From: a virus
Direction: 5' to 3' (one strand)
IMG/VR virus record: IMGVR_UViG_3300002053_000045
Span: 1 to 44,645 of that record
DNA length: 44,645 nt
Position numbers and translations under genes: made by a program. This document shows, in pieces, positions 30,531 through 42,841 of the stretch. The number at the start of each line of letters is the position of its first letter. Within the stretch, counting starts at the first letter, position 1. Below the pieces are notes generated by a model. The model had not been told where the DNA came from. It was given only the letters and a program-made list of their open reading frames with translations, and did no database searches.

Positions 30531-30900
30531 AATATAACATAGACTTCTGATTAAGAAGTCCTTCTTTCCAACCTATAGTCGGCTTGCCTCTCCATTCTTT
30601 ACCAAATTCTTTACCATCATAAAAACATTTCTGTTTTATAAAATTAAAAATAATTCTAATAACATTATTATCTTTCTTTCCCATAATAACAAATTTGGTA
30701 ATTCCACTAAGACCTTTATTTATAAACACTTGCTTTTCATAAAAAAGATTATAAGCTTCGTAATTTTCTAAAACTATAGTTTTTCCACCTATAGAACATT
30801 CTATTTTTTTAATAGCTTTATTAGGCATTAAATTCCATTTGGTTTCTCTTATATTACCTCCTTTAAAAATAGTTTCGTCTTCAAAATATATTATATACAT
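30523..30900 (-). CDS. Small hypothetical protein, last gene of minus operon
   Basis: 125 residues, starting with an AAGGAG site. Opens MYIIYFEDETIFKGGNIRET, a strand pair with a Phe-Glu-Asp turn that recurs in small phage proteins of unknown role, then more strands (KKIECSIGGKTIVLENYEAY) and an IRIIFNFIKQKCFYDGKEFG segment ending in a Gly/Trp-rich tail. No membrane helix. It overlaps the end of the plus-strand operon by eight bases. Function unknown. Confidence 0.55.
   Translation of the reverse strand: MYIIYFEDETIFKGGNIRETKWNLMPNKAIKKIECSIGGKTIVLENYEAYNLFYEKQVFINKGLSGITKFVIMGKKDNNVIRIIFNFIKQKCFYDGKEFGKEWRGKPTIGWKEGLLNQKSMLYFK
30542..30560. terminator. Possible two-way terminator between convergent operons
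   Basis: GACTTCT and AGAAGTC form a seven-base-pair stem around GATTA, 12 bases beyond the last plus-strand stop. CTTCTTTCC follows on the + side. On the - side the sequence is T-rich but mixed. It lies within the C-terminal codons of the opposing gene. Position between two convergent operons is the main argument. Confidence 0.4.
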
Positions 30901-30909
30901 TTTATCTCC

Positions 30910-31680
30910 TTATTTTAAACATAATAATCTTCCTAATTTATTTTTTATATATTCTCTTAATTCTTCTTGATTATAATTAATTTTATCTAACTTATTAAAA
31001 AAACTATCATAATCTATTTTTTCGAAAGTATTTATTTTACTATTCAAGCTTACATTATAAATTTTAACTTTATTTTCATCTTTATATACTCCAAATGTAT
31101 CTTTAGCTCTATTTTTACTACTATACCAACTAATCTTTCCGATACCTCTATGATCAAGTTCTTCTTGATAAAAATGAGTTAAAAATTTACCTTTATCATC
31201 TTTTTTATTATCTAAATTACCAAAATCATATCCTAATAAAAAAATTTCATCTCCTTCATCTAATAAATATATACCTATAGATAAGGCAAATATTCCAACT
31301 AATGATGATCTATATATTCCGTCTTTTAAATCTCTAGAATAATGAGGAACACATTTAAATACTAAAGAATTAGAAGGCTTAGAAAAAATTCTAATATTAT
31401 TACAATTTTCACAACTTTCTTTATTTCTATGTCCTTCACATTTATGACATTCCATTCTTGAATGGTATTTACATAAAATTAAAGGTAATTGATCTAATTC
31501 TTGATGATGTTGGCTATAAAACTGTTTATCTACCCATAATTGAGCTGTAGAAGCATTAAAAAAGTTATAGGAATAGTTTAACCCAAAAGTAAACTTTCCT
31601 TCTAATTTATCCCATAATCCTTTAAAAATACCCTCTTTTATACTAGTTCCTCCTCCTATAATTATTAATTGTTTTTTCAT
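30910..31680 (-). CDS. Rossmann-like DUF115/sialyltransferase-like protein with zinc cluster
   Basis: 256 residues. An N-terminal IIIGGGTSIKEG loop, then GLNYSYNFFNASTAQLWVDK and the later ALSIGIYLLDEGDEIFLLGY segment look like the nucleotide-sugar-binding Rossmann fold shared by DUF115 (motility accessory factor) and some sialyltransferases. Residues 78-93 hold a CxxC-8-CxxC cluster that could bind zinc. It ends the glycan block and is coupled to the gene before it (TAATG). A glycan-processing role is inferred from neighbours and motif; substrate is unknown. Confidence 0.5.
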   Translation of the reverse strand: MKKQLIIIGGGTSIKEGIFKGLWDKLEGKFTFGLNYSYNFFNASTAQLWVDKQFYSQHHQELDQLPLILCKYHSRMECHKCEGHRNKESCENCNNIRIFSKPSNSLVFKCVPHYSRDLKDGIYRSSLVGIFALSIGIYLLDEGDEIFLLGYDFGNLDNKKDDKGKFLTHFYQEELDHRGIGKISWYSSKNRAKDTFGVYKDENKVKIYNVSLNSKINTFEKIDYDSFFNKLDKINYNQEELREYIKNKLGRLLCLK

Positions 31681-32273
31681 TAATATACCACTAAATTATT
31701 ATCATATCTTATAGCTATACATTCCCATTCTTCAGGATGATTTTCGCAGTATAAATCTATAAGTTTTGTATTTAAGTCGTTTATATTTTTAGCTCCAAAA
31801 GTATAATTTAAAGCTCTTCTATACCAATCAGCTACTCTAATTACACATATATCATTATCTTTCATATCAAACCATCTTGCAAAGAATTTAATTCCTGTCA
31901 GCCAACTTATAGCTTTACCTATACATTCTAGAATACCATATCCTTCTCCAATATCTTCTAAAGCTATTCTAGTTAATAAATTTTTATCATATACTGATAA
32001 ATCTAATTTCCTCCATATAACAAAATTCTTTTTATAAATTTTTTCTACAGATCTAATTATAACTTTAGATTGTTGCTCAATAATTTGATTTTCATTAAAT
32101 ACCATCCCTGCATGGTAAAATCTAGGTCTTTCTTTATCTATTCTACCTGTAATTTTCCAGAATAAATGATGCCAAATAGTCGGAGCTGTCATCAAAAATT
32201 TAACAATTTTTGAAGCTGTAGAAAAAGTATCTGTAAAAAATATATCTCCTGTTTTTAATTTTAATTCTTTCAT
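31680..32273 (-). CDS. Permuted NlpC/P60-like (YiiX-type) papain-like enzyme
   Basis: 197 residues. GDIFFTDTFSTASKIV at the start, His 54 in RFYHAGMVFNENQIIEQ, and Cys 143 in DICVIRVADWYRRAL appear in the order of permuted papain-like NlpC/P60 enzymes, in which the His-containing strand precedes the Cys-bearing helix. Such enzymes cut peptide or ester bonds in cell-wall or lipid substrates. No signal peptide is visible. In a phage it could act as a lysis or wall-modifying enzyme, or belong to the glycan block. Confidence in the family is moderate. Confidence 0.5.
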   Translation of the reverse strand: MKELKLKTGDIFFTDTFSTASKIVKFLMTAPTIWHHLFWKITGRIDKERPRFYHAGMVFNENQIIEQQSKVIIRSVEKIYKKNFVIWRKLDLSVYDKNLLTRIALEDIGEGYGILECIGKAISWLTGIKFFARWFDMKDNDICVIRVADWYRRALNYTFGAKNINDLNTKLIDLYCENHPEEWECIAIRYDNNLVVY

Positions 32274-33109
32274 TATCTCTTAAATCTTTTTTTAAAGCCA
32301 GGACTATAAATCCAACTAAATTTAAAACTATACTTAGCTTCTAATATCTTTTTAAATTCATTATACATTCTATTTCTATATTTTAAATATTCTTTTGGTT
32401 TATCTTCAATATATTCTCCTTTTATATAATCAGTATAAAATACTTGATAAGGTTGATAGATATCGGTTCCATATTCTTTAACAAAAGAAACAGAATTATT
32501 TTTTAATCTCCAAAAAAAATCTTCATGTTCTAATAGTTTTAAATTATTATCCCATTTATTGTCTAATAAACATTTTGTTGTAGCTAAGAAAAAGTTTCTG
32601 CATATATCTACTCTCTGAAAAACGATATTTTTAAATTCTATTAATTCTCTTTGAGGAGCTTCAAAATAAAATCCTTTTTCTTTTAATTCTAAATCTCCTT
32701 CCCAACAAATTCTCCTTCTTAAATTAAGTCCTACAATTCCTCGTCTTGGATCTTCTTCTAAAAAGTCTATAACTGTTTGTAAATCATATGGTTGTAAAAA
32801 TTTAATTGAGTCCGCTGTAAGTAAACAATATTTACAATTTAGCTCATTAGCTTTTTCAACTAAAAAATTTCTAGAAGCTGATAATCCATAATCAAAAGGC
32901 AAAATATATCTATAAATATTTTTATTATTAAGACTATTATAATAATCAGTTTTGGTGTCTTTATCTCTTAATCCTTGTTCTCCGATCAATAAAACATAAT
33001 TTTCATTCCAATTATCAAGAATAGACTCGATTGTTTGTTTTTCTAAATTATCTCTTAAAAAGGTAGTATATATTATTGCTATTTTATTCATATTTTTGCC
33101 AATCTTCAC
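32273..33109 (-). CDS. Glycosyltransferase, family-2-like
   Basis: 278 residues from GTG 33109, chosen because AAAGGAAG lies six bases upstream; ATG 33091 (MNKIAIIYTTFLRDN) is a good alternative that starts exactly at the first strand of the fold. A GT-A fold is indicated by IAIIYTTFLRDNLEKQTIES, LPFDYGLSASRNFLVEKANE (the family's SxARN segment), CLLTADSIKF as metal site, and EHEDFFWRLK as acceptor-side acid. It resembles the central domain of the next gene, so the two may act in sequence on one glycan. No membrane anchor. Confidence 0.65.
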   Translation of the reverse strand: MKIGKNMNKIAIIYTTFLRDNLEKQTIESILDNWNENYVLLIGEQGLRDKDTKTDYYNSLNNKNIYRYILPFDYGLSASRNFLVEKANELNCKYCLLTADSIKFLQPYDLQTVIDFLEEDPRRGIVGLNLRRRICWEGDLELKEKGFYFEAPQRELIEFKNIVFQRVDICRNFFLATTKCLLDNKWDNNLKLLEHEDFFWRLKNNSVSFVKEYGTDIYQPYQVFYTDYIKGEYIEDKPKEYLKYRNRMYNEFKKILEAKYSFKFSWIYSPGFKKRFKR

Positions 33110-34958
33110 CGAATTCTTCCTTTAAATATTTTATAACTGGAAAAGGAACTGTTACTTTTCTATTAAATAATTTTAAAGTTTTTATTTTCATTTTAAAATC
33201 TATAGGATATAAATGAATTGTTAATTTTTTAGAAGATGGTTTATTAGTAACTTTAAATCCTTGTTCTTTTAAAAAGTAAATTAATCTATTATAATCAATA
33301 TTATTATTATTAGTAATATGAAAATCATTAGGTTTTAATTTTAGTTCTTTATATCTCACTATATCTAAGCATGTTTCTTTTAATAATATAAAATTTAAAT
33401 TATTATCACATAATTTATTAATAATATTTTCTACAGTTTCATTTTTAATTAAATAAATAATTTTATCTTTATTTATAACTTCTTCTTCTATACTTTTTTC
33501 TTTAATTATTTCATTTTCTGGAGCTTCCTCTTCTATTTCATTAGGTTTAATTTCCTTTTCTAAAAGTCTTTTAGGAATGACTTTACCTTCTGTAGCATAT
33601 ATTTCTTTACCTTTTCCTATAGTAAAATTCATTCTTAAATCCCAATATTCCGAAAATTTTAATGCGTCTTCTTTTCTATTTCTATAGTTTTTATATCTAT
33701 CTGTATCTAAATGAACATGATTTACTTTCATATTAGGAAAATAAACTATATCATATTCAGAATAAAGTTTTAACTTTAAAAATAGATCGCTATGTTCATA
33801 TCTAACTTTAACATTTTCGTTCCATCTTATTTTTTTATTATCGAAAACCTCTCTTCTTGCTATTGCATAATTAAATGTAAGATCGCAATAGTAATACTCT
33901 GCTCTTTTATGTTTATATTCTATAGGATCTGTTAGTTCTAATGGAATATACACTAGAATTCCATGTTCTTTATCATACATTAAAATTCTTTCATAATGAA
34001 GCATTTTTTCATCTTTATAAACAGATCCTCCCACAACGCCAATATTTTTCTTTGATTTTAATAAATCAATAGCTTTATAAATATTATTTTCTTTATCAAA
34101 TACAAAATCGTTATCTCCCCACATTATATAAGGTTCTTCTATTTTTTTGATTAAAAAATTTCTTGCATAACTTAATCCACAATCAAAAGGTATAAAATAA
34201 TATTCAACATTATATTGTTCATAAAAATTAAACATATCTGCCGAAGGATCATCTTGGTCGGCTATATAGATTTTACAATTAGGACAATATGCTTTTAAAG
34301 AAATTATAGTTTTCTTTGTTTCTTCAGGTCTTAAAAGATTAACACATACATAAGCGAAATCATATTTTTTATTATCTAATTTTTCTGGATAGAAACCTGC
34401 GGGATAAAAACCTTTATATGATTTATCTTCATTAGGAGGAGTAGAACTTACAAAATTAGGATCTGGTTTATTCCATCCTTTACCGTAATGAGTTTCCAAA
34501 ATAATTTCGGGATCTTTAGGAACATTAACTTTTCTACCTAAGAAATTTATTTGTTTTAAAGGAAAGAAATTTTCATAAGGAAATACTGCTCTCCATTCGT
34601 GATCCCATTTACCAGTAGAACTTTTTCTATAGCTATAAATATAATATTTATCGTTATCTCTTTCCATTGGAAAAATATCTACTTTATATTTCCAATCACT
34701 TGAAGAAATTGTTATTTCTCTTCTTCTTATAAAATTATATTTATATTTACTAAAAAAAGAAGAACATTCTTTATTAAATATTTTTCTTACCTTCCAATAA
34801 TCATCTTTTAAAATTCCTATATCTGTATCTGAATGATCAGAAGGTAAAAAAGCTTTATCTCTTACCGCCCCTAATAAAGTTCCGCACATTAACCAATAAG
34901 TAATATTATTTTTTTCTAAAATATCTAATACTTTAAAGAAAAATTGTTTATGTGTCAT
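33084..34958 (-). CDS. LicD-type transferase / GT2 / LicD-like three-domain fusion
   Basis: 624 residues. Residues 1-190 are a LicD/fukutin-family domain: CGTLLGAVRDKAFLPSDHSD with TDIG, later YKVDIFP supplying the third acid. Residues about 195-430 are a family-2-like glycosyltransferase (SYARNFLIKKIEEPYIMWGD, then NDF as metal site, and VRYEHSDLFLKLK). After an acidic linker, residues about 500-624 look like a second, degenerate LicD domain (ILLKETCLDIVRYKELKLKP; the KxxVP-x-P end is repeated in both). LicD enzymes transfer phosphocholine or phospho-alditol from CDP donors. The fusion predicts sugar addition and phospho-decoration by one chain. Coupled to the gene before by ATGA. Confidence 0.7.
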   Translation of the reverse strand: MTHKQFFFKVLDILEKNNITYWLMCGTLLGAVRDKAFLPSDHSDTDIGILKDDYWKVRKIFNKECSSFFSKYKYNFIRRREITISSSDWKYKVDIFPMERDNDKYYIYSYRKSSTGKWDHEWRAVFPYENFFPLKQINFLGRKVNVPKDPEIILETHYGKGWNKPDPNFVSSTPPNEDKSYKGFYPAGFYPEKLDNKKYDFAYVCVNLLRPEETKKTIISLKAYCPNCKIYIADQDDPSADMFNFYEQYNVEYYFIPFDCGLSYARNFLIKKIEEPYIMWGDNDFVFDKENNIYKAIDLLKSKKNIGVVGGSVYKDEKMLHYERILMYDKEHGILVYIPLELTDPIEYKHKRAEYYYCDLTFNYAIARREVFDNKKIRWNENVKVRYEHSDLFLKLKLYSEYDIVYFPNMKVNHVHLDTDRYKNYRNRKEDALKFSEYWDLRMNFTIGKGKEIYATEGKVIPKRLLEKEIKPNEIEEEAPENEIIKEKSIEEEVINKDKIIYLIKNETVENIINKLCDNNLNFILLKETCLDIVRYKELKLKPNDFHITNNNNIDYNRLIYFLKEQGFKVTNKPSSKKLTIHLYPIDFKMKIKTLKLFNRKVTVPFPVIKYLKEEFGEDWQKYE

Positions 34959-35380
34959 AATATTATTATATTATAAGTCCTATCTTCTTTTCCTAAATCA
35001 CATTCAATATAAAAAATTTTTTGCCATTTACCTAAATCCAATTTACCATTTATAACAGGAATAACTTCTTGATGATTTAAAAGCATGGCTCTTAAATGAC
35101 TATATCCATTTCTTCTCTCTTCTGGAGGAACATCTCTATGTTCTAAATCATCATGTCTATATAAGCAATTAGAAGAAGCTAATCTTTCCATAAAATCGTG
35201 CATATCTTTTTTAAGTAATGTTTCGTTTTCTAATAATCTAATACAAGCAGTAGTGTGTTTAGAATAAACAATAATTAATCCATTATAATTGGGATCAAAA
35301 CTAGATATTTCTTCTTGAACTTCATCTGTAATATTAATAAATTCTTCTTTTGGAACTATAGTTTTACAAATTCTTTTCAT
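34955..35380 (-). CDS. YjbQ/UPF0047-family protein
   Basis: 141 residues from ATG 35380, which has AAAGGAGT just upstream; the longer in-frame extension lacks a site and overlaps the previous stop. Family marks are clear: GLIIVYSKHTTACIRLLENE, the ERLASSNCLYRHDDLEHRDV region, SHLRAMLLNHQEVIPVINGK and LDLGKWQKIFYIECD. YjbQ proteins are widespread small metal-binding proteins; some have secondary thiamine phosphate synthase activity, and the true role is uncertain. An occurrence in a phage operon next to a reductase and LicD gene is unusual. Confidence 0.8.
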   Translation of the reverse strand: MKRICKTIVPKEEFINITDEVQEEISSFDPNYNGLIIVYSKHTTACIRLLENETLLKKDMHDFMERLASSNCLYRHDDLEHRDVPPEERRNGYSHLRAMLLNHQEVIPVINGKLDLGKWQKIFYIECDLGKEDRTYNIIIL

Positions 35381-35384
35381 ATTT

Positions 35385-36011
35385 TTACTCCTTTGGACAT
35401 TCTCTACTTGGTAAAACAATAAAATTATCTTTTTTAACAATTATATGTGAACCATTTTTAAACTCTTTATTTAATATTCTTAATACAAATTTTGCTATTC
35501 TTTCTGGTGGCATTAAGGTTTTTTTATCTTCTTTTGGAAATAGAGCTTTTCTCATCTTTGTTTTAGTTCTAGAAGGATGTAAACCATAAGAATTAATACC
35601 TTCTTTTGCTAAAGTCTCTGTTAAGCTCATTAGACCAGCTTTACTGGCACAATAAGCTCCCCATTCGGCTCTACCTTCAAATGCTGAAGTAGATCCTATA
35701 TTAATAACTGTAGAAAGCTTCCCAAATCGTAAAGCGTAATTAATACAATAAAAAGCTCCTGTAAGATTTACATTTATATGATTATGCCATTCATAATATC
35801 TAATATCTTTGACTTTATTAGGCTTAATATAACCAGCTACATTTATAAGAATATCTGGCTTTTCTTTTTCCATATATCTATAAACAGTCATTAAATCTGT
35901 AATATCTAATTCTTCTCTTCCAGGATTTCTAACTTTATATCTTTCTTTTTTAAGGAGTTTGGCTATAGCTTTAGCCATTCCGCCATTTCCACCAGTAATT
36001 AAAACTTTCAT
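35385..36011 (-). CDS. Short-chain dehydrogenase/reductase
   Basis: 208 residues from ATG 36011 with AAGGAGG upstream; a longer reading upstream is a shadow of the preceding gene. Nucleotide-binding TGGNGGMA (6-13), NVAG (57-60), Ser 107 in INIGSTSAF and the YxxxK pair Tyr 120/Lys 124 make a complete SDR active site. Short for an SDR, but complete to the end of the fold. In Haemophilus Bcs1, an IspD-like domain and an SDR act together to make CDP-ribitol; both are present here within three genes. Reduction of a ketose or ketose phosphate to an alditol is the inferred reaction. ATGA joins it to the gene before. Confidence 0.75.
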   Translation of the reverse strand: MKVLITGGNGGMAKAIAKLLKKERYKVRNPGREELDITDLMTVYRYMEKEKPDILINVAGYIKPNKVKDIRYYEWHNHINVNLTGAFYCINYALRFGKLSTVINIGSTSAFEGRAEWGAYCASKAGLMSLTETLAKEGINSYGLHPSRTKTKMRKALFPKEDKKTLMPPERIAKFVLRILNKEFKNGSHIIVKKDNFIVLPSRECPKE

Positions 36012-36226
36012 TTCTCCTCCTTTAGCTTCTCTTGTATTTGTAATTGTTTTATATCTTCTGTCGGAAAACAAAAAACATCTATTTTGTTCCTTCTGCACCA
36101 ATCAACAAAAGAATGACAGTCTTTTTCTGAAACAAATCCAGGATGAAATTTAAGAAGATAATGTTTACCTGGTTCTAAACTTAGCAATTCTTTAACAACA
36201 AACTTCTTTCCCCTGCGAGGTTTCAT
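36008..36226 (-). CDS. Small protein beginning MKPRRGKK
   Basis: 72 residues, start preceded by AAGGAGG. Basic N-terminus MKPRRGKKFVVKELLSL, then EPGKHYLLKFHPGFVSEKDC and a WCRRNKIDVFCFPTEDIKQL helix. Short alpha/beta, no membrane helix, Cys at 37, 44 and 53. Begins with the same words as the two microproteins before it. ATGA overlaps on both sides. Function unknown. Confidence 0.6.
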   Translation of the reverse strand: MKPRRGKKFVVKELLSLEPGKHYLLKFHPGFVSEKDCHSFVDWCRRNKIDVFCFPTEDIKQLQIQEKLKEEK

Positions 36227-36312
36227 AGTTCCTCCTTTATTTCACTTAGTCCACCTTTTTGTGGACTATCTGAAACAGCTATATTCTCCAGTATTTTATT
36301 ACGAGGTTTCAT
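36223..36312 (-). CDS. 29-residue microprotein MKPRNK, ATGA-coupled
   Basis: Twenty-nine residues, starting MKPRNKILENIAVSDSPQK. Both ends overlap neighbours by ATGA, which argues for real translation. It lacks a ribosome binding site of its own. Its middle codons contain an eight-base-pair palindromic hairpin, so the segment may instead be a regulatory leader for the gene at 36226 whose strong site follows it. Function unknown. Confidence 0.4.
   Translation of the reverse strand: MKPRNKILENIAVSDSPQKGGLSEIKEEL
36247..36268. promoter_or_regulatory. Perfect inverted repeat TAGTCCAC / GTGGACTA
   Basis: Eight-base-pair perfect stem with six-base loop, about 20 bases before the GGAGG site of the gene at 36226 (minus strand). 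No U-run on either side, so not a usual terminator. It could be a protein-binding operator or an mRNA hairpin that controls that gene's translation. Confidence 0.45.
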
Positions 36313-36437
36313 AATTCTACTACTTTAGTTTTACCGCAAGCAGGACAGCCATATATCCCACACTTTTTAGCTACCCTATCAGGAACGAGTAATAATTTCC
36401 AAGTATGTCTATGCTTTTTCTTCCTACGAAGTTTCAT
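36309..36437 (-). CDS. 42-residue basic microprotein with CxxC zinc half-site
   Basis: Forty-two residues with AAGGAAG upstream: MKLRRKKKHRHTWKLLLV, then KKCGIYGCPACGKTK. Cys 26, 31 and 34 with a nearby His could bind one metal, alone or as a dimer. The basic start would suit nucleic acid. ATGA overlap with both neighbours (stop of the cytidylyltransferase gene, start of the next microgene). Too short for usual gene callers. Function unknown. Confidence 0.6.
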   Translation of the reverse strand: MKLRRKKKHRHTWKLLLVPDRVAKKCGIYGCPACGKTKVVEL

Positions 36438-37102
36438 AACTCTTCCTTTAATAAATATTTAAAAATTTTATAATCCTTTGGGTAAGTTAATTTAAGTCCT
36501 TCCCAAAATGAAATATTTACTGTTTTTATTTTAGTGTTCTTTTTATATGATAATAATACTTGAGTATCATCTGTAGCATTTTCTAATTTAGTAGTTTGGT
36601 GAGCTTTATATAATAAATCAAAATCAAAACATTGTGGCATCAGTAAATCGTACATATAAGTTCTATCATATATATATTCGAATTTTTCTTTTATTCTGCA
36701 AGGAGTATTTATACTTTTACATACAGTAATTACTGCATCATATTTATTTAAATAATTAAAACATCTTGATATTGTTTTTGATTTTAACAAAGGTCTATTT
36801 GCATCTGTAATAATAACTTTACCTTCGTAATTTTGTTCTTTTAAATATTGTAAAGCATTATAAATACTTTCTTGTCGAGTTTTTCCTCCTTCCACTACGA
36901 TAGTATCTTTAATTTTATTTTGTTCTATAATAGAAACTGTAATATCTTTAAACTCTTTAGGAACTACTAATATTTTTTGAGTTCCTTCAAATATTTTTAA
37001 AGTATAAATAAAAAGAGGAATATTATGTATCGGAACAAATTGCTTTGTTAATCCGAATCTCTTTCCACTACCTCCAGCTAATATAATACTTACTTTTTGC
37101 AT
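36434..37102 (-). CDS. IspD/TarI-family cytidylyltransferase
   Basis: 222 residues, the usual length. The family's CTP-binding loop is LAGGSGKRFGLTKQF (Lys 20), followed by VVEGGKTRQESIYNAL, ITDANRPL (100-105; DAARP in IspD), a MPQCF segment, ATDDTQVL (176-183) and GLKLTYPKD with Lys 204. These are the marks of enzymes that join CTP to a sugar-alcohol phosphate. Where IspD has an Asp-Thr pair contacting its acceptor, this protein has Asn-Thr (132-133), so the acceptor probably differs. No isoprenoid genes are near; SDR and LicD genes are. A CDP-alditol (ribitol- or glycerol-like) product is inferred. Confidence 0.75.
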   Translation of the reverse strand: MQKVSIILAGGSGKRFGLTKQFVPIHNIPLFIYTLKIFEGTQKILVVPKEFKDITVSIIEQNKIKDTIVVEGGKTRQESIYNALQYLKEQNYEGKVIITDANRPLLKSKTISRCFNYLNKYDAVITVCKSINTPCRIKEKFEYIYDRTYMYDLLMPQCFDFDLLYKAHQTTKLENATDDTQVLLSYKKNTKIKTVNISFWEGLKLTYPKDYKIFKYLLKEEL

Positions 37103-37479
37103 CTTGGGTTATATGTATGTTTATTTATATCTTCTTTGCAAAATTCTGCTTCTATTTCTATAAATTCTGGAGTCCAAAAATTTCTATGACAAGAAATAGC
37201 TCTATCATCAATTAATAAATCATAATGAGGTTTTTCTATTATTAATTCATCATAAGGAATATCATATTTTTTTAACCATTCTTCTGTAAGTTTTCTTGCA
37301 TTTTTTCCGCTGGCTCCTCTTCTAGTAAATATAGTTATTTTATGTTCTTTCTTTTTTAGTCCTCTAATAAGTTTTATCATGTTTTCTCTAGGTTTAACTT
37401 TAGGTATATCTTCTTGATGATTTCTCCTTATAGAAGTACATATAGTATTATCCATATCAAAAGCTATAGTATATTTCAT
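37090..37479 (-). CDS. HAD-superfamily phosphatase
   Basis: 129 residues, a minimal HAD. Motif I is FDMDNT (7-12), motif II ITIFTRRGAS with Thr 52, motif IV LLIDDRA with Asp 91/92. No cap domain, as in sugar-phosphate phosphatases of capsule and lipopolysaccharide loci. It overlaps the cytidylyltransferase gene by 13 bases. It may remove a phosphate from a sugar-alcohol or a sugar before or after CDP activation. A histidine at 98 and cysteine-rich end (FCKEDINKHTYNPRCKK) could hold a metal. Confidence 0.7.
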   Translation of the reverse strand: MKYTIAFDMDNTICTSIRRNHQEDIPKVKPRENMIKLIRGLKKKEHKITIFTRRGASGKNARKLTEEWLKKYDIPYDELIIEKPHYDLLIDDRAISCHRNFWTPEFIEIEAEFCKEDINKHTYNPRCKK

Positions 37480-37622
37480 TTTATCATACTCCTAAAATAA
37501 ATAATAAAAAATTTTTTAATTTCTTCAAATGTATATCGTTGAGCAAAAATAAAATATAAAGATATTGGTAATATTACTAACACAAAACCTAATGTAAATA
37601 TAATTAATTTTAATAAATTCAT
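37476..37622 (-). CDS. 48-residue membrane microprotein
   Basis: Begins MNLLKLIIFTLGFVLVILPI; residues 4-27 form one hydrophobic span, then a basic amphipathic tail (QRYTFEEIKKFFIIYFRS). ATGA overlaps at both ends (with the methionine aminopeptidase stop and the HAD start). Not recognised; a single-span phage membrane peptide. It might be a small lysis or superinfection-exclusion factor, which is speculation. Confidence 0.6.
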   Translation of the reverse strand: MNLLKLIIFTLGFVLVILPISLYFIFAQRYTFEEIKKFFIIYFRSMIK

Positions 37623-38362
37623 ATTGTTAAAATTTCTCCTTCTTCTTTAGTTACAACTATAGTATGTTCAAAATGAGCTGATAATTTTTTATCTTTTGTT
37701 ACAACTGTCCATCCATCATCTAAAATTTCGATATCTGATTTACCTAATGTAGCCATTGGTTCTAAAGTAAATACCATTCCTTCTTTTAAAATAAGACCTT
37801 CGTCTTTATTCCCATAATTAGGAACTAAAGGAAATTCGTGTAATTCTTTTCCTATTCCATGTCCAGCAAATGTTTTAATTACAGATAATCCGTTATTTTC
37901 TAAATGAGTTTGTATAGCATTAGAAACATTTGATAAATAATTTCCTGGATATATTTCTAATAATCCCATAAAAAGAGATTCTAATGTTGCTTTTACTAAT
38001 TTTTTTATTTTTCTTGATCTTTCTCCTATAATAAAAGTAATAGCTTTATCTGAATAATATCCTTTATATACTATACCTAAATCTAAACTAACTATATCTC
38101 CTTTTTTAATAATCTTATCTTTCTTTGGAAGTCCATGAATAATTTCTTCATTAATAGATACACATAAACAATTAGGATATCCTCTATATCCCTTAAAAGC
38201 TGGCTCGATTTTATATTCCTTAATTAAAGTTTCTGCTAGAATTTCTAAATCATAAGCTGAAGTTCCAGGAATCTTAGCTATAGTTGCTACATTTTCTAAT
38301 ATATCAGATAATATAAAACCAGCTTCTCTTAATATATCTATTTCTTGTTTAGTATAAATCAT
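37619..38362 (-). CDS. map: Type I methionine aminopeptidase
   Basis: 247 residues, the bacterial type I length, with every catalytic residue: His 76 (EEIIHG), metal ligands Asp 94 (SLDLG) and Asp 105, His 168 (GHGIG), His 175 (LHE), Glu 201 (EPM) and Glu 232 (HFEHTI). Spacing equals the E. coli enzyme exactly, offset by three. It removes the initiator methionine. There is no zinc-binding N-terminal extension, so it probably works free in the cytoplasm on phage or host proteins. A phage-borne copy is uncommon and must repay its space. ATGA joins it to both neighbours. Confidence 0.9.
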   Translation of the reverse strand: MIYTKQEIDILREAGFILSDILENVATIAKIPGTSAYDLEILAETLIKEYKIEPAFKGYRGYPNCLCVSINEEIIHGLPKKDKIIKKGDIVSLDLGIVYKGYYSDKAITFIIGERSRKIKKLVKATLESLFMGLLEIYPGNYLSNVSNAIQTHLENNGLSVIKTFAGHGIGKELHEFPLVPNYGNKDEGLILKEGMVFTLEPMATLGKSDIEILDDGWTVVTKDKKLSAHFEHTIVVTKEEGEILTI

Positions 38363-41916: not shown

Positions 41917-42080
41917 AAATAAGAATCGGCTTTCTTTTTAGTTTTTTCCATCCATTTTCCTGCATAAACATCCCAAAGAATAGACCAACCTAATGTAATA
42001 CAAGCTAAAGGAAGAGCCCATAGCCAATATTTAAGCCATATAATTGTCCATAATGAATGAGAAATTAGCCATTTTTTCAT
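41913..42080 (-). CDS. 55-residue Trp-rich membrane microprotein
   Basis: Starts MKKWLISHSLWTIIWLKYWL; residues 10-38 contain one or two short hydrophobic spans with nine tryptophans overall, and a basic tail (KWMEKTKKKADSY). ATGA overlaps at both ends. The Trp content points to an interfacial or short-spanning peptide. Not recognised; may be a small membrane regulator or a lysis peptide. Confidence 0.6.
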   Translation of the reverse strand: MKKWLISHSLWTIIWLKYWLWALPLACITLGWSILWDVYAGKWMEKTKKKADSYL

Positions 42081-42841
42081 TTTAATCTCCTTTCTAATAT
42101 TTTAATACATAAACTATTTATTTTATCTATATCTATTTCATTAGGCAAAAAAGAATTTATATAAGCTAATTCAGCTTTTTTAAATAAATCAGTAGCTGTT
42201 TCTTTAACTTTTTCTAATGACCATTCTCCTCTTTTTATAGATAATAATTCATGGCTATCTTTTCTTCTCACATATAATTTACCTTCAACTAAAAATTCTA
42301 TTCCCATTCTTAAAAGTCTAATTAAATGAGAAGCATTTTTAGTATCGTATCCAAATTCTTTTACTAGTTTTTTTCTTTTTTCTCCCATATATCCTTGAAA
42401 AGCTTGATGCGTCATACGATGTAATTGACCATAAGCATATCCTACAAAGCTATGATATACTTGTTTACTAACAAATAAATTTCTATTTTTGATCAATTCT
42501 TTACCTTCTTCTGATAAATAGATATAACAATCTTCTGGTAGCCATAACATAGAAAGTACATTTGGATTTCCTTTAGAAAGTAAATTAATAAATTTTTTAA
42601 CTTCATAGATAACAATATCCCATTCATCTTGCTTGATTTCTTTAGTACCTTTTGATCCAAATTCTTTTAATCCTAAATAATATTCTTTAGAAGGAATTAT
42701 AATGCTCATTATATCTTTATCGTCAATAGAATTAGGATTTTCTTGAGGAACATATAAACCATGAGCTATAGATCCTCTATATCCAATTAAAATAGCCCAT
42801 TCAGATAATTCTTTTAATTGTATTAATTTTTTAGGTAACAT
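42077..42841 (-). CDS. RlaP-like predicted nucleotidyltransferase
   Basis: 254 residues. GYRGSIAHGLYVPQENPNSI with a later DDKDIMSIII gives the nucleotidyltransferase GS and paired-Asp motif, and helical text NVLSMLWLPEDCYIYLSEEG onward matches the RlaP (COG3541) family. RlaP proteins are believed to add a nucleotide to RNA or act on RNA ends, and are frequent in phages. A helical C-terminal half binds the substrate. The gene stands between the Trp-rich microgene and a small gene, in the DNA-metabolism part. Confidence 0.75.
   Translation of the reverse strand: MLPKKLIQLKELSEWAILIGYRGSIAHGLYVPQENPNSIDDKDIMSIIIPSKEYYLGLKEFGSKGTKEIKQDEWDIVIYEVKKFINLLSKGNPNVLSMLWLPEDCYIYLSEEGKELIKNRNLFVSKQVYHSFVGYAYGQLHRMTHQAFQGYMGEKRKKLVKEFGYDTKNASHLIRLLRMGIEFLVEGKLYVRRKDSHELLSIKRGEWSLEKVKETATDLFKKAELAYINSFLPNEIDIDKINSLCIKILERRLK

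What the first reader, a model, noticed from the sequence alone, without database searches (positions are those of the whole stretch)
32273..37479. Possible phage pathway for CDP-activated alditol and phospho-glycan decoration
Within about 5 kb on one strand lie a HAD phosphatase, an IspD/TarI-like cytidylyltransferase, an SDR, a LicD-GT-LicD fusion and a second glycosyltransferase. IspD-like plus SDR is the composition of Haemophilus Bcs1, which makes CDP-ribitol; LicD/fukutin enzymes use CDP-linked alditol or choline. No isoprenoid or wall gene is near, so these genes most simply form one pathway: ketose phosphate to alditol phosphate to CDP-alditol to glycan. A virus carrying the whole route would be new to me.
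Basis: partly seen in the sequence, partly recalled or inferred. Interest (0 to 1): 0.85.

Follow-up and report, generated by a model that had tools for sequence, protein, structure and literature searches.

The report
Phage-encoded CDP-alditol synthesis and transfer genes
This bacterial virus carries a tightly packed run of genes that most likely makes a CDP-activated sugar alcohol (ribitol or a close relative) and attaches it as a phosphate ester to a glycan, a job so far described for bacterial capsules and cell walls; several unrelated phages turn out to carry the same core.

Summary
The 'second LicD' is not supported. The key evidence is comparative. A relative of this phage (L225) carries IspD and SDR FUSED, overlapping the LicD-GT2 gene: the architecture of Haemophilus Bcs1 (CDP-ribitol synthase). 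Another phage (L094) has LicD>IspD>SDR>YjbQ, so IspD>SDR>YjbQ recurs. Three more IMG/VR phages pair IspD-SDR with a TagF-like CDP-alditol phosphotransferase, or the start of one. Parabacteroides and Proteus loci hold fused IspD-SDR with LicD. A C-terminal SDR signature is shared by IspD-linked SDRs only (0 of 171 others). So the core IspD+SDR+LicD pathway is well supported. The exact alditol, the acceptor and the roles of HAD and YjbQ are not; IspD phylogeny and fold do not separate MEP from ribitol-phosphate enzymes. It is not unique: Yersinia phage YerA41 has a fused IspD-SDR and hypermodified DNA. I found no paper describing phage-encoded CDP-alditol synthesis. New variant of a known kind; interest about 0.6.

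The parts
37090..37479 (-). HAD-superfamily phosphatase (129 aa), EcbF/BcbF-like; its end overlaps the IspD gene
   Evidence: TIGR01689 34.7 bits (below cut-off 162); phrog_1238 E 2e-24; DxDxT and IDD motifs in the sequence; role in the pathway inferred from gene overlap only
36434..37102 (-). IspD/TarI/CRPPA-family cytidylyltransferase (222 aa); Arg15, Lys20, Lys204 and Asp100, Arg103, Thr133, Arg147 kept, TPQ motif is MPQ (Met155)
36011..36438 (-). three tiny overlapping ORFs (43, 29 and about 72 aa), each starting MK[LP]R; the first has a zinc-ribbon-like motif; function unknown
35385..36011 (-). short-chain dehydrogenase/reductase (208 aa) with the signature PxRTxTxMR..LFP.E of IspD-linked SDRs; Asn/Ser/Tyr/Lys residues conserved
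34955..35380 (-).
34425..34958 (-). LicD domain (fukutin/FKRP-like phosphotransferase), Asp41/Asp44/Asp46 and Asp94 conserved
33611..34361 (-). GT2 glycosyltransferase domain of the same 624-aa protein (gene 33084-34958); approximate limits
   Evidence: (B4GALNT1, E 3.9e-10)
33084..33461 (-). C-terminal extension, weakly LicD-like, without DxD; no counterpart in relative L225
32273..33091 (-). second GT2-like glycosyltransferase (272 aa), 47% identical to one in L225
31680..32273 (-). next gene of the run, 197 aa; looks like a permuted NlpC/P60 (YiiX-like) enzyme by eye, no library match
   Evidence: no match; sequence inspection only
30910..31680 (-). sialyltransferase-like protein (256 aa), also present in L225
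   Evidence: phrog_4603 E 7e-6
30541..30561 (.). terminator-like inverted repeat where the minus-strand run meets the plus-strand tail genes
   Evidence: 2 found, 1.7 expected by chance, so its position is the only argument

Best explanation
A tailed phage carries a split Bcs1-type CDP-alditol synthase (SDR reduces a host ketose phosphate such as ribulose 5-phosphate; the IspD-family enzyme joins the alditol phosphate to CMP from CTP) and a LicD-type transferase, fused to a GT2 glycosyltransferase, that moves alditol phosphate from the CDP donor to a glycan built by the neighbouring GT2 enzymes. Most likely the glycan is on the host surface or on the virion. Shown: the gene families, the fusion and gene-order links, conserved catalytic residues. 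Inferred: substrates (ribitol phosphate likeliest, tetritol or another alditol phosphate possible), the direction of the pathway, the acceptor, and helper roles for HAD (phosphatase) and YjbQ.
For: Fused IspD-SDR overlapping LicD-GT2 in L225, a relative that shares at least ten further genes with this phage at 23-50% identity. LicD>IspD>SDR>YjbQ in phage L094. Fused or adjacent IspD-SDR with a TagF-like CDP-alditol phosphotransferase in phages L010 and L092 and the start of one in L095. Bacterial loci: Parabacteroides distasonis GT2 - 'bifunctional cytidylyltransferase/SDR' - LicD - GT; Proteus mirabilis fused IspD-SDR with LicD two genes on. Signature PxR[TLC]x[TS]x[ML]R.. in 7 IspD-linked SDRs and in none of 171 other SDR-like ORFs. 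Window SDR is sister to the L094 SDR, 98/81, and one clade of all nine IspD-linked SDRs is not rejected. No IspF gene in this record or in six others. IspD scores below the MEP equivalog cut-off (126.6 vs 181.3). Bcs1 chemistry is experimentally established (PMC10299916).
Against: The IspD tree does not resolve the window protein and its fold ties TarI, CRPPA and IspD, so the substrate rests on context; it also misses the ribitol-5-P model's cut-off (91.1 vs 166). In the window IspD and SDR are separate genes with three small ORFs between. L225's fused IspD has lost some motifs and may be degenerate. HAD is in none of the other loci examined and YjbQ in one. No acceptor, flippase or export gene is seen, and the record is incomplete.
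Confidence: 0.7

Rival explanations
1. The same CDP-alditol pathway, but the acceptor is phage DNA: a hypermodified base carries alditol phosphates, as may happen in YerA41.
For: YerA41 has a fused IspD-SDR, thymidine with a modification of about 1 kDa with 184 m/z steps, and 184.014 is the mass of a tetritol-phosphate residue. In L094 and the window family the cluster sits beside replication or recombination genes.
Against: No base-hydroxylase or DNA-modification gene was recognised in the window; LicD and GT2 enzymes are known for glycans; the DNA was sequenced by ordinary metagenomics; YerA41 lacks LicD; its absolute masses do not fit a simple tetritol-phosphate chain.
Confidence: 0.1
2. 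The IspD-family enzyme is a MEP cytidylyltransferase that boosts host isoprenoid synthesis; SDR, LicD and GT genes are unrelated neighbours.
For: IspD is the best Pfam and NCBIfam family; top Foldseek hits include IspD; identity to ispF-linked IspDs is as high as to any other (33%).
Against: Score below the equivalog cut-off; outside a clade of nine IspDs (89/85); Met155 replaces the Thr found in all ten IspD references, as in human CRPPA and two other phages; fusion with SDR and linkage to LicD or TagF-like genes in several phages; no IspF.
Confidence: 0.07
3. The pathway makes another CDP donor (CDP-glycerol, CDP-choline-like or a CDP-sugar) for LicD, the SDR acting on the glycan or the sugar rather than on a ketose phosphate.
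For: LicD enzymes use CDP-choline as well as CDP-ribitol (own knowledge); the closest LicD equivalog is a cholinephosphotransferase (61 bits, cut-off 225).
Against: CDP-choline and CDP-glycerol are made by other nucleotidyltransferase families (own knowledge); IspD-SDR fusions fit CDP-alditol synthesis.
Confidence: 0.08

Closest known systems
Bcs1 of Haemophilus influenzae type b (bifunctional ribulose-5-phosphate reductase / CDP-ribitol synthase)
   Same: IspD-family domain plus SDR, one pathway; the fused architecture occurs in the related phage L225
   Different: In the window the two are separate genes; the Bcs1 sequence itself was not available here, so similarity was tested against 'bifunctional cytidylyltransferase/SDR' proteins of Parabacteroides and Proteus; the partner in Hib is Bcs3 (CroT/CrpP/CriT), not LicD
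Parabacteroides distasonis plasmid polysaccharide locus (NZ_OY725790.1, L220)
   Same: IspD-SDR next to LicD and GT2
   Different: Cellular locus with Wzy polymerase, transporter and aminotransferase; fused enzyme; no HAD or YjbQ
TarI/TarJ of Gram-positive wall teichoic acid synthesis
   Same: IspD-family ribitol-5-P cytidylyltransferase; nearest structures (Z 26.0, tied with IspD 25.4)
   Different: Below the curated cut-off; the TarJ partner is a medium-chain dehydrogenase (own knowledge), here an SDR
Human CRPPA/ISPD with FKTN/FKRP
   Same: IspD fold with MPQ motif; LicD domain matches FKRP at E 4.5e-5 with its catalytic Asp residues
   Different: The phage has an SDR; LicD is fused to a GT2 domain
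Yersinia phages YerA41 and GN1
   Same: Phage-encoded IspD-SDR with the same SDR signature
   Different: Fused; with KpsC-like and glycerophosphodiesterase genes, no LicD or YjbQ; hypermodified thymidine (YerA41); described only as possible genes for sugar-modified nucleotides

Membership tests
Bcs1-type CDP-ribitol synthase | IspD-family cytidylyltransferase domain with catalytic residues | tested here: met
Bcs1-type CDP-ribitol synthase | SDR domain with catalytic Asn/Ser/Tyr/Lys and the signature of IspD-linked SDRs | tested here: met
Bcs1-type CDP-ribitol synthase | both domains in one polypeptide | tested here: not met
   separate genes in the window; fused in relative L225. Filed as 'works like', not as a member.
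Bcs1-type CDP-ribitol synthase | ribulose-5-P reduction and CDP-ribitol formation | not testable with these tools
   needs enzyme assay
IspD (MEP cytidylyltransferase) | curated equivalog score | tested here: not met
   TIGR00453 126.6 bits, cut-off 181.3
IspD (MEP cytidylyltransferase) | linkage to MEP-pathway genes | tested here: not met
   no IspF in this or six other phage records; record incomplete
IspD (MEP cytidylyltransferase) | phylogenetic placement within MEP enzymes | tested here: inconclusive
   unresolved, p-AU 0.316
TarI (D-ribitol-5-phosphate cytidylyltransferase) | curated subfamily score | tested here: not met
   NF001183 91.1 bits, cut-off 166
LicD phosphotransferase | Pfam LicD above gathering score with metal-binding Asp residues | tested here: met
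   72.8 bits, cut-off 22.6; Asp41/44/46 and 94 conserved
LicD phosphotransferase, second copy at the C-terminus | LicD match and DxD motif | tested here: not met
   no Pfam match at E<=1; E 0.004 to first domain
YjbQ/UPF0047 | curated score | tested here: met
   TIGR00149 90.1 bits, cut-off 67.75
EcbF/BcbF capsule phosphatase | curated subfamily score | tested here: not met
   34.7 bits, cut-off 162

The most novel reading that the evidence does not exclude
IspD-SDR modules are a general phage system for alditol-phosphate decoration, coupled to LicD, TagF-like or KpsC-like transferases according to acceptor, with YjbQ as an unrecognised helper enzyme of the LicD version; in YerA41 the module builds a tetritol-phosphate chain on thymidine, so that CDP-alditols would be a new precursor class for hypermodified DNA.
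Probability: 0.15. Interest if true: 0.88.

Novelty: new variant of a known kind. Interest (0 to 1): 0.6.

Why it matters
CDP-alditol chemistry builds teichoic acids, several capsules and the human dystroglycan glycan. Phages are known to recognise such polymers and to re-glycosylate them (prophage TarP, PMC9650247), but I found no report of one that makes the activated alditol itself. If true, phages bring their own alditol-phosphate donor to change a host receptor, the virion or DNA. The module also gives a genetic clue to YjbQ, an old family without a settled role, and a testable idea for the unsolved base of YerA41.

Tried and rejected
INPHARED hits H1-H5 to the window IspD were taken at first as phage homologues; L002-L004 proved to be chromosomal by their neighbours, the Listeria fragment carries a LicD/IspD/epimerase cluster on a 2 kb unverified contig, and Microcystis phage MaAM05 ispD lies among ribosomal genes. 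Single-protein IMG/VR scans with IspD and LicD found nothing; a six-row IspD alignment was too diverse to scan with. The genome-collection scan returned mostly generic SDRs. Samples of 369 genomes of the class of G008, 299 of the phylum of G011 and 296 of the phylum of G009 gave one fused IspD-SDR (L214/L215), beside a gene that looks TagF-like. The LicD-GT2 fusion was not seen in 693 sampled genomes. AlphaFold on LicD-GT2 with two rows failed (pLDDT 37.6) and was not searched. IspD phylogeny and fold search could not decide the substrate. HAD as a conserved member of the module: no match in the other loci. Papers on CDP-ribitol with phage in the title or abstract concern host receptors; the library is open-access only.

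Full report
What is there. The window is a 44,645-base linear IMG/VR record from a tailed phage: tape-measure and tail proteins, a protein with a pectinesterase match and a laminin-G-like protein, SbcC/D-like genes. Plus-strand tail genes meet a minus-strand run at a terminator-like repeat at 30541-30561. The run from HAD (37479) to 30910 is tightly packed: neighbouring genes overlap by up to 13 nt or are separated by at most 4 nt, several with clear ribosome-binding sites. Order: HAD, IspD-family, three tiny ORFs, SDR, YjbQ, LicD-GT2, GT2, a 197-aa protein, a sialyltransferase-like protein.

Does the set form a pathway? Neighbourhood in one genome is weak evidence, so I looked for independent cases. 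With an alignment of the window IspD+SDR, L010 and YerA41 (A2), IMG/VR gave L092, L094, L095 and L010 as matches over both domains. L094 is a phage contig (RecA-like, gp32-like, GroEL) with GT2, GT, LicD, IspD, SDR and YjbQ in a row; its SDR is the window SDR's sister (98/81) and its YjbQ is 38% identical. L092 lies beside an HK97-type capsid gene, L010 among virion genes. L010 carries a PF04464 CDP-glycerol phosphotransferase-family protein; the L092 neighbour matches it and a bacterial relative by profile comparison (probability 94.8%), and L095 has the start of the L092 homologue at the contig end.

The strongest case came from LicD. L225 is part of a 42.8 kb contig with SbcC/D-like, GT2 and about ten further genes homologous to the window, so a distant relative of this phage. 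There IspD and SDR are one 429-434 aa protein whose gene overlaps the LicD-GT2 gene by 4 nt. Fusion in a relative is direct evidence that the two window genes act together, and the overlap ties them to LicD. The fused IspD of L225 has lost some motifs, so it may be under weaker constraint.

Cellular counterparts. A Parabacteroides distasonis plasmid has GT2, 'bifunctional cytidylyltransferase/SDR', LicD and GT in sequence; Proteus mirabilis has a fused IspD-SDR with LicD two genes on; a further genome (G832, phylum of the Flavobacterium G009) has the fusion. Hib Bcs1 with this architecture makes CDP-ribitol from ribulose-5-P (PMC10299916). I did not have the Bcs1 sequence, so 'Bcs1-type' rests on architecture and on these relatives.

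A motif test. In the first three phage proteins a stretch near the SDR C-terminus stood out. The pattern PxR[TLC]x[TS]x[ML]R..[FY]..E is in the window, L094, L010, YerA41 and three bacterial fusions, and in none of 171 other SDR-like ORFs (the eight hits of 179 include one duplicate locus). The pattern was written after seeing most of these sequences, and L092, L095 and L225 carry looser forms, so it is a marker, not proof. The two extra Arg residues could bind the substrate phosphate (inference).

Substrate. Catalytic and substrate residues of the IspD family are kept (residue roles from own knowledge of E. coli IspD); the TPQ motif is MPQ, shared with human CRPPA, L092 and L095, while all ten IspD references and TarI have Thr. 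The tree leaves the window protein unresolved and VIA-align ties TarI 26.0, CRPPA 25.4 and IspD 25.4. So I infer an alditol phosphate from context, ribitol-5-P being the best guess. No IspF is present.

Destination. LicD and GT2 point to a glycan. In L010 and L092 the genes sit among virion genes; in the window, L225, L094 and YerA41 with DNA-metabolism genes. Tail proteins with carbohydrate-active matches fit a phage that deals with host surface glycans. I put host surface or virion glycan first and DNA second. YerA41 makes the second option worth keeping: its thymidine carries an unknown modification with 184 m/z steps and a 104 'spacer' (PMC9023294); tetritol phosphate adds 184.014 and a tetritol 104.047, whereas ribitol phosphate would add 214.024. 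The absolute masses miss a simple model by about 19, so only the step fits.

HAD and YjbQ. HAD overlaps IspD in the window but has no match in the other modules, so its membership is a guess (in Hib a phosphatase domain acts after ribosyl transfer). YjbQ follows SDR in two widely different phages, which is suggestive; its chemistry there is unknown.

Novelty. I found no paper in the open library on phage CDP-alditol synthesis, but YerA41's gene was annotated in 2020 as a MEP cytidylyltransferase and linked to sugar-modified nucleotides (PMC7354516), and Bodo saltans virus has a 456-aa protein annotated IspD, the length of a fusion, its second half not examined. So: known enzymes, in a viral setting that is recurrent and apparently undescribed.

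Noticed in passing
L011:15010-16377 (Yersinia phage YerA41, MW570730.1): The 184 m/z step of the unsolved thymidine modification equals a tetritol-phosphate residue (184.014), and the 104 spacer a tetritol minus water; absolute masses do not fit a simple chain.
   Followed up: partly
window 34955-35380; L094:11189-11620: YjbQ/UPF0047 lies directly after the SDR in two distant phages, a possible clue to the function of this family.
   Followed up: partly
BFVD A0A2H4UTB4 (Bodo saltans virus): A giant virus protein annotated as IspD has 456 aa, the length of bacterial IspD-SDR fusions.
   Followed up: no
L002, L003, L004, L172 (MT835701, MT836784, MT837822, MW495066): Public 'phage' records that look like bacterial chromosome pieces; they inflate searches for phage metabolic genes.
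   Followed up: partly
window 36011-36438: Three tiny overlapping ORFs between IspD and SDR, all starting MK[LP]R; the first has a zinc-ribbon-like motif.
   Followed up: no
window 37619-38362: Phage-encoded type I methionine aminopeptidase (TIGR00500 298 bits) just upstream of the run.
   Followed up: no
window 42077-42841: RlaP-like nucleotidyltransferase (PF10127 65 bits), an RNA-repair family, in a phage.
   Followed up: no
L094:4974-6696: Phage with a GroES-like ORF next to a 426-aa GroEL-family protein.
   Followed up: no
L227:9941-11774: Another phage with LicD and GT2 genes separated by a methyltransferase-like gene, next to terminase, and no IspD in the contig: possibly uses the host's CDP donor.
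   Followed up: partly
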